Positions 4,059-26,396 of a stretch of 27,142 nucleotides of DNA are shown here, piece by piece. Source of the stretch: a virus; IMG/VR virus record IMGVR_UViG_3300038714_000385, positions 1 to 27,142 of that record. One strand, given 5' to 3'. The position numbers and the translations under genes were made by a program. How positions within the stretch are numbered: the first letter of the stretch is position 1; every line of letters starts with the position of its first letter. The notes below the pieces were generated by a model. That model was not told where the DNA came from. It was given only the letters and a program-made list of their open reading frames with translations, and searched no databases.

Positions 4059-4289
4059 ATGAAAAAATGTAAATGTTGTGGTGGATATATAGAGCAGGGA
4101 AGAGTAGAATTGGGATTACCAAATTGTCTTGCCTGTGCTAAAATAATTAATGTTCAAAGAGTAAAAGGCAGAATGGTTTATGAGCATAAGACTGGGGGAT
4201 ACATAGAAACAATGTCGCCAGAATCATTCTCATATAATAAGAAATTTTTTAATAGAAGTGGTAATAGAAGTGTTTTAAAACAAGTATAA
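4059..4289 (+). CDS. Small C4 zinc-finger protein, DksA/TraR-like
   Basis: 76 residues from the ATG at 4059. A longer reading from 4023 would run back through the preceding gene and the promoter, so it is not preferred. The first 28 residues form a C4 zinc ribbon, Cys4-x2-Cys7-x15-Cys23-x2-Cys26, within KKCKCCGGYIEQGR and LPNCLACAK. The spacing and the 'CG..I...R.E....P.C..C' wording match the C-terminal zinc finger of the DksA/TraR family, whose members act on RNA polymerase through its secondary channel. The coiled-coil arm of DksA is missing and the C-terminal half is unrecognised, so transcription control is a guess. An extra Cys6 is present. Confidence 0.6.
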   Translation: MKKCKCCGGYIEQGRVELGLPNCLACAKIINVQRVKGRMVYEHKTGGYIETMSPESFSYNKKFFNRSGNRSVLKQV

Positions 4290-4292
4290 ATA
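4285..4292 (+). promoter_or_regulatory. T4-type late promoter TATAAATA
   Basis: Exact match, with the stop codon of the zinc-finger gene (4287-4289) inside it. The expected start, near 4298, is only two bases from the ATG at 4300. Confidence 0.5.
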
Positions 4293-6378: not shown

Positions 6379-6549
6379 TTACGCTTCCCAAGCACTACCA
6401 CGGTACATGCCGCGTTTAATAGTAGGGACCGCCTTTTTAATCTCAGAAGGATCGTAAGTCACTCCTCTGTAAATAGCGGTTTTTGTCTTTGGTTTGACCA
6501 CCGCTTTTTCAGAAGTAACTTCCGCTCCTCTATATTGTAGAGTAGCCAT
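6379..6549 (-). CDS. Short YRG-repeat protein (DUF4278-like)
   Basis: 56 residues from the ATG at 6549, preceded by AAGGAAAA at good spacing. A longer reading from 6660 has no clear ribosome site. The peptide shows three YRG motifs: LQYRGAEV near the N-terminus, AIYRGVTYDP in the middle and GMYRGSAWEA at the C-terminus. 'YRG..Y' is the signature of DUF4278, a tiny family seen in cyanobacteria and their phages, with no known function. Pro- and Lys-rich linkers separate the motifs. It is the last gene of the minus-strand late block. Confidence 0.65.
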   Translation of the reverse strand: MATLQYRGAEVTSEKAVVKPKTKTAIYRGVTYDPSEIKKAVPTIKRGMYRGSAWEA

Positions 6550-6590
6550 CGTTATTTTCCTTTTTTTACGGTGCGTTGCTTCATCTATCC

Positions 6591-6647
6591 CATGGTTTAA
6601 GAATAAAACCATGTTGACAAAATAGATTACTTCCATCGCTTGCGCGA
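6591..6647 (-). promoter_or_regulatory. Structured leader between two small genes (two hairpins)
   Basis: The 113 bases between the two flanking minus-strand genes hold two stem-loops. One is TCGC-TTGC-GCGA (6636-6647), which on the minus strand has a GCAA (GNRA-type) tetraloop. The other is an 8-bp inverted repeat, CATGGTTT/AAACCATG (6591-6613). GATAAATA at 6671-6664 (minus) is a one-off late-promoter match upstream. A reading frame runs through the region, but the hairpins and lack of a ribosome site argue for a leader. Function unknown. Confidence 0.35.
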
Positions 6648-6662
6648 CCAACGTATTCAAAT

Positions 6663-6944
6663 CTATTTATCATCTAAACATGTTTTATGTTTATCTGATA
6701 CGTTTCTTTCTTGAATTAAAATCTTTAGCTTCATGTTTAAACGAATCATGTCGTTATCAAGAGCCTGAATTTGTCTCTTTAAAATTCCTAATGATTTACT
6801 AGCTTCACTTAATGCTGGTCTAACTTCTTTCGTTACCCACTTCCAAATGTACCAAATAAAGTAACCCGTCAAAAGTAGTGCAATAACGGGAAATCCAAAT
6901 GTTTGAATCGTATCTGCCCAAAATGTAAAATCTCTTCCGCTCAT
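6663..6944 (-). CDS. TM plus coiled-coil protein, paralogue B (holin-like?)
   Basis: 93 residues. A short N-terminus, one hydrophobic helix (about 17-36: GFPVIALLLTGYFIWYIWKW), then an amphipathic coiled coil with SKSLGILKRQIQALDNDMIRL, and a charged tail. It shares the pattern 'G.P......G.F', 'SKSL..L' and 'NDM(I)...' with the gene directly upstream, so the pair arose by tandem duplication. One TM helix plus a coiled coil in under 100 residues recalls BhlA/UviB-type small phage holin-like proteins, but this is a shape match only. The two genes are separated by one base. Confidence 0.6.
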   Translation of the reverse strand: MSGRDFTFWADTIQTFGFPVIALLLTGYFIWYIWKWVTKEVRPALSEASKSLGILKRQIQALDNDMIRLNMKLKILIQERNVSDKHKTCLDDK

Positions 6945-6945
6945 A

Positions 6946-7230
6946 TTAATCGTCTCTACAATCTTCTTTACCTTCGCTTGCAGCTACTCGGTTAAGATTT
7001 GGTTCTACATGAAAAAATGATGAAAATAAACAATCGATTTTTACGATATCATTATTCATTACATCACATTTATTTTCTAAAGATAACAATGACTTTGATA
7101 GCCCTTTTATTGAATCTGTAACTTGAGCTAAAATAAATTTTAAAATAAGAAATAGAAATCCACCTGTAGCTAAAGCAACAGTAATAGGAACTCCTACGGA
7201 TTGAATGAAGTTTAGAATATCGCCAGTCAT
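6946..7230 (-). CDS. TM plus coiled-coil protein, paralogue A (holin-like?)
   Basis: 94 residues. One hydrophobic helix (about 12-34: VGVPITVALATGGFLFLILKFIL), then a coiled coil containing GLSKSLLSLENKCDVMNNDIVKI, and a polar tail with Cys, Glu and Asp. It is the paralogue of the next gene downstream, with the same length and layout. Its ATG follows directly on a TAA that I read as the end of the gene interrupted by the group I intron, and AGGG lies only a few bases upstream, so translation may couple to that gene. A role in lysis or membrane anchoring is possible but unproven. Confidence 0.6.
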   Translation of the reverse strand: MTGDILNFIQSVGVPITVALATGGFLFLILKFILAQVTDSIKGLSKSLLSLENKCDVMNNDIVKIDCLFSSFFHVEPNLNRVAASEGKEDCRDD

Positions 7231-7253
7231 TTACCCTGGGACCGTAAGGGCCC
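7231..7253 (-). other. Predicted 3' exon after the group I intron
   Basis: If the intron ends at base 7254, the remaining 23 bases finish a codon and then encode ALTVPG and a stop at 7233-7231, with the next gene's ATG following at once. Joined to the base at 7500, the reading is YAKVVWALTVPG. The first four bases (GGGC) can pair with GCCC at 7468-7465 as P10. The same stretch can also form a small hairpin (GGGGCC/GGUCCC). The placement is a prediction from pairing and frame, not from transcript data. Confidence 0.45.
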
Positions 7254-7499
7254 CCAACTTTGTTATCGTATTTTTTTTAATTAATACTTCTATATGTCAC
7301 CATATAGTTCAGACTATATCTTCATTCTTTCGAATGCTGGACGCTCTTGGGTAGATTATTGTTGGGACTCACTACCTAGTCGTTGCACCTTCCGCAGAAC
7401 TTAAACCCTCTGCGGCTTGGCTCAGTATTGTCTCAAAGAGAGTTTCACTGAATTCATCCAGTACGGGCAATTTAAATTTTAAAGAACAAATAATTATTT
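7254..7499 (-). ncRNA. Group I intron (T4-like, with P7.1), no endonuclease gene
   Basis: Read on the minus strand, a complete core can be drawn. P3 pairs CTGGATG (7461-7455) with CGTCCAG (7343-7337). P4 pairs CAGT (7450-7447) with ACTG (7426-7423), enclosing a P5 TCTC/GAGA hairpin and a CAAT joiner. P6 is GCC/GGT with P6a CCGCAGA/TCTGCGG. P7 pairs GACTA (7381-7377) with TAGTC (7316-7312). P7.1 is GGTAG/CTACC, P8 is CATTC-GAAA-GAATG, and P9 is CTATATG-GTGA-CATATAG (7307-7290). The segments GTGCAACGACTA and GATATAGTCTGAAC match the R and S elements of T4 phage introns. In the proposed ends, P1 is GGUAU with GUACU (7464-7460) and P10 is GGGC with GCCC. About 246 bases, with no room for a homing endonuclease. 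The core is secure; the splice sites are inferred. Confidence 0.85.
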
Positions 7500-7502
7500 A
7501 TA
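7495..7502 (-). promoter_or_regulatory. Late promoter match TATAAATA across the predicted 5' splice site
   Basis: Exact TATAAATA on the minus strand (7502-7495), covering the proposed exon/intron junction. If active, it would start transcripts near 7489, inside the intron and upstream of P3, giving an RNA without the 5' exon. It may be chance in AT-rich sequence. Confidence 0.35.
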
Positions 7503-7503
7503 C

Positions 7504-7539
7504 CACTTTGGCATAAATTTTAGTGCACTTTGGCATAAA
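7504..7539 (-). repeat. 14-bp direct repeat with 22-bp offset at the end of the 5' exon
   Basis: TTTATGCCAAAGTG occurs at 7539-7526 and again at 7517-7504 (minus strand). The first copy is the C-terminal coding end of the upstream virion gene (FYAKV), followed by CAC and a stop. The second copy directly precedes the predicted 5' splice site. The offset of 22 is not a multiple of three, so the copies lie in different frames. Confidence 0.85.
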
Positions 7540-8341
7540 AAAGATTATATCTAGTATCGTCGGCAAAAAAACTGCCTCCGTATACTTGTATACCTCCGAA
7601 AGAGAATATAAAAACATAATAACCATCATCCGCTGGCACTGAATGATTATTATTAAAAAGATTAATTAAACTATAAGTTCCAAGTCCAGAGCTTTCATTG
7701 TTATGCCTAACAATAGTCCCGTTCCTCGTTTGTATAAAAAGAACTTTAAAGTCTGACCCATATCTTATTGGTGCAGTTTCTCCAATGGTGCTCGACCACT
7801 GATCGCTGGAAGTAACTCCAGGCGGCACCATTCCTGTGCGCAATTGAATCCTTTGAGGACCGGTGGTGATGGCTTGTCCTCTAAATGAGAAATCTCCGAT
7901 ATCCTCACCACTACTATCTACTATAGCTTTTTTGAAACCATCAACGGTAGGCCAATTTTGAAGCTCTACTAGTTGTCCATCAAGATTCCTTACATAAGAT
8001 TTATTTTCATCTGCACCATAAAGAGTGACTTCCTCAGATTTGGGCTTGAATAATGGTATTTTTCTTCCTAAAGCATCCTCATTAAATAAAACACAAGTAT
8101 TCAATAAAAATGTAAAATCAATAAAGTTATCCCAATGTGTTTTATTAATTTCATTAGGAACAGATTCTTGCGTTGGACGTAAAGTCTTATGACGGCAATT
8201 CATATAGATTTCCTCACCGCGAACACTGGTTCGAATTCCATTAGTTCCAGTCGCGTAAAGAACACCTAATGCTCCACCTGGATTAGGTGGGGAATTATCA
8301 TATTCCCAATTTGGATTACCTGGTATATCTCTAAAAGCCAT
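7520..8341 (-). CDS. Virion-associated protein, unknown; probable 5' exon host of the group I intron
   Basis: 273 residues as read. The N-terminus (MAFRDIPGNPNWEYDNSPPNPGG) and the section GIRTSVRGEEIYMNCRHK look like a small tail-region protein I associate with marine phages. The C-terminal half is Gly-, Ser- and aromatic-rich with beta character (APIRYGSDFKVLFIQTRNGTIV, GYYVFIFSFGGIQVYGGSFF). No enzyme motif is seen. It sits between the holin-like gene and the intron. The reading stops at FYAKVH, but a repeat of the FYAKV codons 22 bases on, joined across the intron, would end YAKVVWALTVPG. Losing one T from the six-T run at 7542-7537 would restore one continuous frame, so this end is either a real frameshift or a base-calling error. 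Confidence 0.65.
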   Translation of the reverse strand: MAFRDIPGNPNWEYDNSPPNPGGALGVLYATGTNGIRTSVRGEEIYMNCRHKTLRPTQESVPNEINKTHWDNFIDFTFLLNTCVLFNEDALGRKIPLFKPKSEEVTLYGADENKSYVRNLDGQLVELQNWPTVDGFKKAIVDSSGEDIGDFSFRGQAITTGPQRIQLRTGMVPPGVTSSDQWSSTIGETAPIRYGSDFKVLFIQTRNGTIVRHNNESSGLGTYSLINLFNNNHSVPADDGYYVFIFSFGGIQVYGGSFFADDTRYNLFYAKVH

Positions 8342-26388: not shown

Positions 26389-26396
26389 TATTTATA
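26389..26396 (-). promoter_or_regulatory. T4-type late promoter TATAAATA
   Basis: Exact match on the minus strand, followed by G, six bases upstream of the ATG at 26383 and just after the stop of the preceding gene. It would serve the gp2-like/tube/gp26 operon with a very short leader. Confidence 0.6.

What the first reader, a model, noticed from the sequence alone, without database searches (positions are those of the whole stretch)
7254..7499. Compact group I intron in a tail/lysis gene region
The minus strand can be folded into P3, P4, P5, P6/6a, P7, P7.1, P8 and P9 with perfect or near-perfect pairing, and its GTGCAACGACTA and GATATAGTCTGAAC segments match T4 intron core elements. At about 246 bases it has no endonuclease, so it must rely on another enzyme for mobility or be fixed. 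A model with P1 (GGUAU/GUACU) and P10 (GGGC/GCCC) explains both ends. T4-like introns usually sit in nucleotide-metabolism or DNA genes; a virion-protein location is unusual.
Basis: partly seen in the sequence, partly recalled or inferred. Interest (0 to 1): 0.85.

Follow-up and report, generated by a model that had tools for sequence, protein, structure and literature searches.

The report
Group I ribozyme behind phage fibre gene
A short self-splicing-type RNA (a group I intron without its own endonuclease) sits between two late genes of a marine T4-like phage, and close copies sit behind the same kind of fibre-like gene in two other phage lineages, but the upstream pairing that should mark its first splice site is missing in all of them.

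Summary
The core observation holds. Rfam's group I model matches minus strand 7509-7290 at 86 bits, and P3-P9.1 are all present. No gene is interrupted. The element starts behind the stop codon of a 273-aa fibre-like ORF (8341-7520) and ends before the ATG of a 94-aa ORF (7230-6946). It is absent from 79 contigs carrying relatives of the 94-aa gene, apart from a copy elsewhere in one of them. In 17 of 20 close relatives a T4-type late promoter (TATAAATA) lies 5-6 nt before that ATG. Here the only such box (7502-7495) overlaps the proposed 5' splice site. I found ~92% identical copies directly behind the stop codon of homologous fibre-like genes in two other phage lineages, once tandem with a second group I intron. 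The fibre proteins are only 33-59% identical. Compensatory changes in P8, P9 and P9.1 suggest the fold is maintained. No upstream P1 beats shuffled sequence in any copy, although several standard introns have one. The only consistent partner for the guide sequence (UGCCC) lies downstream (GGGU|A). That suggests a permuted, downstream-cleaving ribozyme, but the evidence is post hoc and weak. Splicing is untested.

The parts
7290..7509 (-). Rfam group I intron match (RF00028)
   Evidence: cmscan 86.1 bits, whole model
7255..7502 (-). most likely extent of the conserved ribozyme unit: UAUAAAUA... to the terminal G of ACAAAGUUG
   Evidence: alignment with L116 and L119 copies; 3' end by analogy with terminase introns in 6ec and L098 and P9.0 AAC/GUU; 5' end unproven
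7495..7502 (-). T4-type late promoter box TATAAATA overlapping the proposed 5' splice site
   Evidence: in 17 of 20 close relatives the same box ends 5-6 nt before the ATG of the 94-aa gene
7464..7470 (-). guide-sequence region UUGCCCG (UUGCCC pairs with GGGUAA 7236-7231)
7455..7461 (-). P3 5' strand CUGGAUG; partner CGUCCAG at 7343-7337
7377..7381 (-). P7 5' strand GACTA; partner TAGTC at 7316-7312
7350..7376 (-). P7.1 hairpin GGTAG...CTACC, a subgroup IA feature
7323..7336 (-). P8 CATTC-GAAA-GAATG; L116 and L119 have CATCC/GGATG (compensatory)
7290..7307 (-). P9 hairpin, two compensatory pairs between the copies
7268..7287 (-). P9.1 hairpin, one compensatory pair
7231..7236 (-). GGGU|AA: candidate P1 partner downstream of the ribozyme, directly before the ATG of the 94-aa gene
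   Evidence: GGGU present in all four fibre-linked ribozymes, 230-238 nt after the guide G
7497..7539 (-). 22-nt tandem duplication of the end of the fibre ORF (TTTATGCCAAAGTG...); copy 1 carries the stop codon, copy 2 carries the late promoter and proposed splice site
7520..8341 (-). 273-aa fibre-like ORF; its C-terminal part is homologous to the ORFs in front of the L116 and L119 copies
6946..7230 (-). 94-aa ORF of PHROG 18771, unknown function, downstream of the element

Best explanation
It is a genuine, fold-maintained, endonuclease-free group I ribozyme of subgroup IA, found behind fibre-like genes that share a C-terminal domain. In this phage it lies in the untranslated stretch between the fibre-like gene and the 94-aa gene. 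I think it most likely still acts in cis on the late transcript that covers both genes, removing itself by guanosine-started splicing from ...GGU or GGUAU (7502 or 7500) to the G at 7255 or 7254. Neither protein would change, so carrying it would cost the phage little. Shown: fold, position, conservation, absence from relatives. Inferred: that it is active, where it cuts, and that it ligates exons.
For: Whole-model Rfam match. Copies ~92% identical in two other lineages, both directly behind a fibre-like gene (in L116 the first of two introns abuts the stop codon). Four two-sided compensatory pairs in 54 pairs, 99.4% of cells paired, 0-1 two-sided pair in slid controls. A U precedes AAAUA in all four related ribozymes, and in L119 and L116-A the intron starts with a UAA in frame with the fibre ORF; in-frame stops are seen in many such introns (PMC3984707). 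3' end ACAAA..UUG as in terminase introns with a readable reading frame. A window P1 of GGU|A with UGCC would resemble the weak candidates in Silviavirus helicase introns.
Against: No upstream P1 scores better than shuffled sequence in any of the four fibre-linked ribozymes (p 0.77-0.97), while P2-less standard introns searched the same way reach p 0.01-0.22; introns with a P2 and some others scored poorly too. The L119 copy has no acceptable 5' exon partner at all. The late promoter box sits on the proposed 5' splice site, so transcripts starting there would lack the 5' exon. No P10 is conserved.
Confidence: 0.42

Rival explanations
1. Permuted, downstream-acting ribozyme: P1 forms between the guide sequence and GGGU|A located after the 3' splice site. 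Guanosine cuts there, freeing the downstream RNA with a 5' end next to the AUG here (or defining the 3' end of the fibre message in L116 and L119), and the 15-25 nt between could be circularised. Topology as in lariat-capping ribozymes and in a synthetic ribozyme-then-target circRNA system.
For: GGGU|N is the only guide partner at the same place in all four ribozymes (+230 to +238 nt), with the U.G wobble in each. The next pair outward is A-U in the three B copies and C-G in L116-A. In L116/L119 the conserved 3' flank stops right after GGGUA. The helix is in the MFE of the window and L116-B. A synthetic construct with the target downstream of the ribozyme works (PMC10415121).
Against: Each pairing is weak alone (p 0.03-0.11); combining the three independent ones gives roughly 0.01-0.03, and the idea was formed after looking. 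L116 and L119 flanks are homologous. The five core pairs never vary among the three B copies. The MFE of L116-A does not show it.
Confidence: 0.25
2. A relic: a recently transferred intron that lost its 5' splice site and does nothing, or only serves as a folded leader.
For: No upstream P1 in any copy. L119-B looks like a deletion fusion between introns A and B of an L116-like tandem. Only three lineages are known.
Against: Compensatory changes and an intact core in all copies; the ribozyme is better conserved (~92%) than the fibre proteins next to it (33-59%).
Confidence: 0.2
3. Splicing switches the C-terminus of the fibre protein: the unspliced message ends at the in-frame UAA, the spliced one adds a tail encoded after the intron.
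For: In L116 and L119 the three differences in the first ~27 nt of the 3' flank are all synonymous in one frame (GGLLFWPWV).
Against: In the window the fibre stop codon (7520-7522) lies upstream of the splice site, so the protein cannot change. In the other frames the extensions are not conserved, and in L116 the favoured frame runs on over the antisense portal gene.
Confidence: 0.08

Closest known systems
Phage group IA introns (T4 td type; S-CBWM1 psbA intron 2, qdvp001 terminase)
   Same: Core P3-P8 with P7.1, P9 and P9.1; ORF-less form of 227 nt in S-CBWM1 psbA; sequence similarity over the core
   Different: Those interrupt a coding gene, and several show a recognisable P1 with the upstream exon; this one lies between genes and shows none
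Cluster J mycobacteriophage introns in capsid and tail genes (PMC3706429)
   Same: Introns linked to virion genes
   Different: They are inside coding sequence and their splicing was shown experimentally
Clostridioides difficile c-di-GMP allosteric group I ribozyme (PMC3984707)
   Same: Group I ribozyme in an untranslated region, ahead of a start codon
   Different: No aptamer or riboswitch was found here
Lariat-capping ribozymes (PMC4167309) and a synthetic ribozyme-then-target circRNA system (PMC10415121)
   Same: Reaction site downstream of a group I core, if the permuted reading is right
   Different: No sequence kinship tested; activity here is only inferred

Membership tests
Group I intron (RF00028) | Covariance-model match above the curated cut-off | tested here: met
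   86.1 bits against 50
Group I intron (RF00028) | Core helices P3, P4, P6, P7, P8 with P3/P7 pseudoknot | tested here: met
Group I intron (RF00028) | P1 with U.G wobble between the upstream exon and the guide sequence | tested here: inconclusive
Group I intron (RF00028) | Terminal G with P9.0 at the 3' splice site | tested here: met
   ACAAAGUUG, AAC/GUU pairing read from the sequence; same layout as in 6ec and L098 terminase introns
Group I intron (RF00028) | Guanosine-initiated self-splicing | not testable with these tools
   needs RNA
Subgroup IA | Extra hairpin(s) P7.1/P7.2 between P7 and P3' | tested here: met
   GGTAG/CTACC at 7376-7350, paired in all three copies
Mobile (homing) intron | Encodes a homing endonuclease | tested here: not met
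   No ORF inside; no GIY-YIG or HNH_3 match in the L119, L116, L120 and L091 records
Lariat-capping / permuted group I ribozyme | Reaction site downstream of the core | tested here: inconclusive
   GGGU|N pairing in all four copies, weak individually

The most novel reading that the evidence does not exclude
A naturally permuted group I ribozyme of phages: it has no upstream splice site and uses a target placed after its own 3' end (GGGU|A), cutting late messages next to the start codon or defining the end of fibre messages, possibly releasing a tiny RNA circle.
Probability: 0.22. Interest if true: 0.85.

Novelty: new variant of a known kind. Interest (0 to 1): 0.5.

Why it matters
A 2014 review states that all phage group I introns seen until then lie in protein-coding genes (PMC3984707). 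A fold-maintained group I ribozyme that lies between genes, follows the same kind of fibre-like gene in three phage lineages and lacks an upstream P1 is a small, testable exception. If the downstream-target reading is right, it would be a natural counterpart of engineered RNA-circularising ribozymes and a new way for a phage to process late messages. If not, it is an intron that avoids harm by sitting in untranslated RNA.

Tried and rejected
2) A distant 5' splice site inside the fibre gene (UAUGGGU|CAGAC, 288 nt upstream of the guide, 7 bp): no matching counterpart in L116 or L119. 3) 3' flank as an exon of another gene: exact 16-mer hits elsewhere (L107-L110) lie in unrelated sequence, three of them in one capsid-like gene; chance. 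4) An intron in other relatives of the 94-aa gene: none near that gene in 79 contigs, one elsewhere = L119. 5) Intronless homologues of the fibre domain: none in isolate phages, viral contigs or genomes beyond the same lineages. 6) AlphaFold model of the fibre protein: mean pLDDT 37, not used; no PDB sequence relative. 7) Ribozyme pattern in bacterial genomes: none. 8) A purpose-built covariance model was not made: three near-identical copies would add little to RF00028.

Full report
Observation. The minus strand of 7509-7290 matches the Rfam group I intron model over its whole length at 86.1 bits, the only Rfam hit in the window. Folding shows P3, P4, P5, P6, P7.1, P8, P9 and P9.1 with z -3.5. 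No ORF lies inside on that strand. BLAST against isolate phages finds only core segments in known phage introns such as S-CBWM1 psbA, the qdvp001 terminase region and Klebsiella terminases.

Place. The element lies between a 273-aa ORF (stop at 7520) and a 94-aa ORF (ATG at 7230). The neighbourhood holds PAAR and gp10-like baseplate genes, so the 273-aa protein is called fibre-like here by context only. Of 79 contigs with relatives of the 94-aa gene, none carries a group I intron near that gene (16 of the closest checked over the locus with Rfam; all whole records searched with RF00028). One distant record has a copy elsewhere. In 17 of 20 close relatives the late box TATAAATA ends 5-6 nt before the ATG, so transcription would start at about the ATG (the start spacing is my own knowledge of T4 late promoters). 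In the window the only such box near this gene is at 7502-7495, on top of the proposed 5' splice site and 264 nt before the ATG. Transcripts from it would lack a 5' exon.

Relatives. The copy found (L111 = L119, a 185-kb contig) and a second lineage found by a 5'-end pattern (eight contigs alike around the element, representative L116) carry the same ribozyme, 230 (L119) and 228 (L116) of 250 columns identical to the window's. In both it follows a fibre-like gene whose protein is 33% (L119) or 42% (L116) identical to the window's ORF. In both the gene lies against the portal gene, facing it. In L116 a second group I intron (A, 6415-6635) abuts the stop codon and precedes the shared one (B, 6688-6910). 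The L119 copy has A-like first bases and a B-like body, as if a tandem pair had collapsed. No GIY-YIG or HNH_3 endonuclease was found in these records.

Is it maintained? Over the three B copies, 54 named pairs are 99.4% paired and four pairs change on both sides (P8 one, P9 two, P9.1 one); slid controls give 0-1. With three sequences this is modest but points to selection on the fold.

The ends. The 3' end ACAAA..UUG matches terminase introns whose reading frame fixes the junction (6ec, L098). The 5' end is the problem. A search for the best upstream P1 gave p 0.77-0.97 for all four fibre-linked ribozymes. Standard introns under the same search reached 0.01 (qdvp001, UP87), 0.02 (ZH4), 0.13 (CRP-7) and 0.22 (phD2B); introns with a P2 and some others (YP1, MRSA28, L091a) also scored poorly, so this test is not decisive alone. 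A weak P1 such as GGU|A with UGCC, similar to the weak candidates in Silviavirus helicase introns, cannot be excluded.

The downstream pairing. The only partner for the guide that recurs in all four is GGGU|N, 230-238 nt downstream (window GGGU|AA at 7236-7231, directly before the ATG). The wobble U.G is in the same place, and the next pair outward is A-U in the B copies and C-G in A. Each case alone is weak (p 0.083, 0.081, 0.034, 0.109); taking window, B lineage and A as independent gives about 0.01-0.03 by Fisher's method, after the fact. It would put the reaction site after the ribozyme, as in lariat-capping ribozymes (PMC4167309) and an engineered circle-making ribozyme (PMC10415121).

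Judgement. Membership in the group I family by structure is met; splicing is untested and the P1 criterion is inconclusive. My best explanation is an intercistronic intron that still acts in cis (0.42), then a downstream-acting ribozyme (0.25), a relic (0.2) and a C-terminal switch (0.08). What is new is the intergenic position, the repeated link with one fibre-like domain in three lineages, and the missing upstream P1.

Noticed in passing
L002-L019 upstream of the 94-aa gene; window 26389-26396, 1806-1813, 4285-4292: TATAAATA boxes end 4-7 nt before start codons, as if several late genes of these phages were leaderless.
   Followed up: partly
L116 6415-6910: Two group I introns in tandem, about 50 nt apart, behind one fibre-like gene.
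   Followed up: yes
L091 11300-11774 (-): Another tandem pair of group I introns, next to what looks like a capsid-type gene on an 82-kb contig.
   Followed up: no
window 7497-7539: 22-nt tandem duplication of the fibre gene's end; the first copy keeps the stop codon, so the gene does not depend on the element.
   Followed up: partly
window 6663-6944 and 6946-7230: Two adjacent small ORFs with a hydrophobic stretch, both in PHROG 18771 (unknown function): tandem paralogues.
   Followed up: no
L047 3177-3228: Glutamine riboswitch downstream of the 94-aa gene relative.
   Followed up: no
L116 5740-6426 and L119 5119-5823: The fibre-like gene and a small gene before it are inserted antisense between portal and head-tail connector genes.
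   Followed up: no
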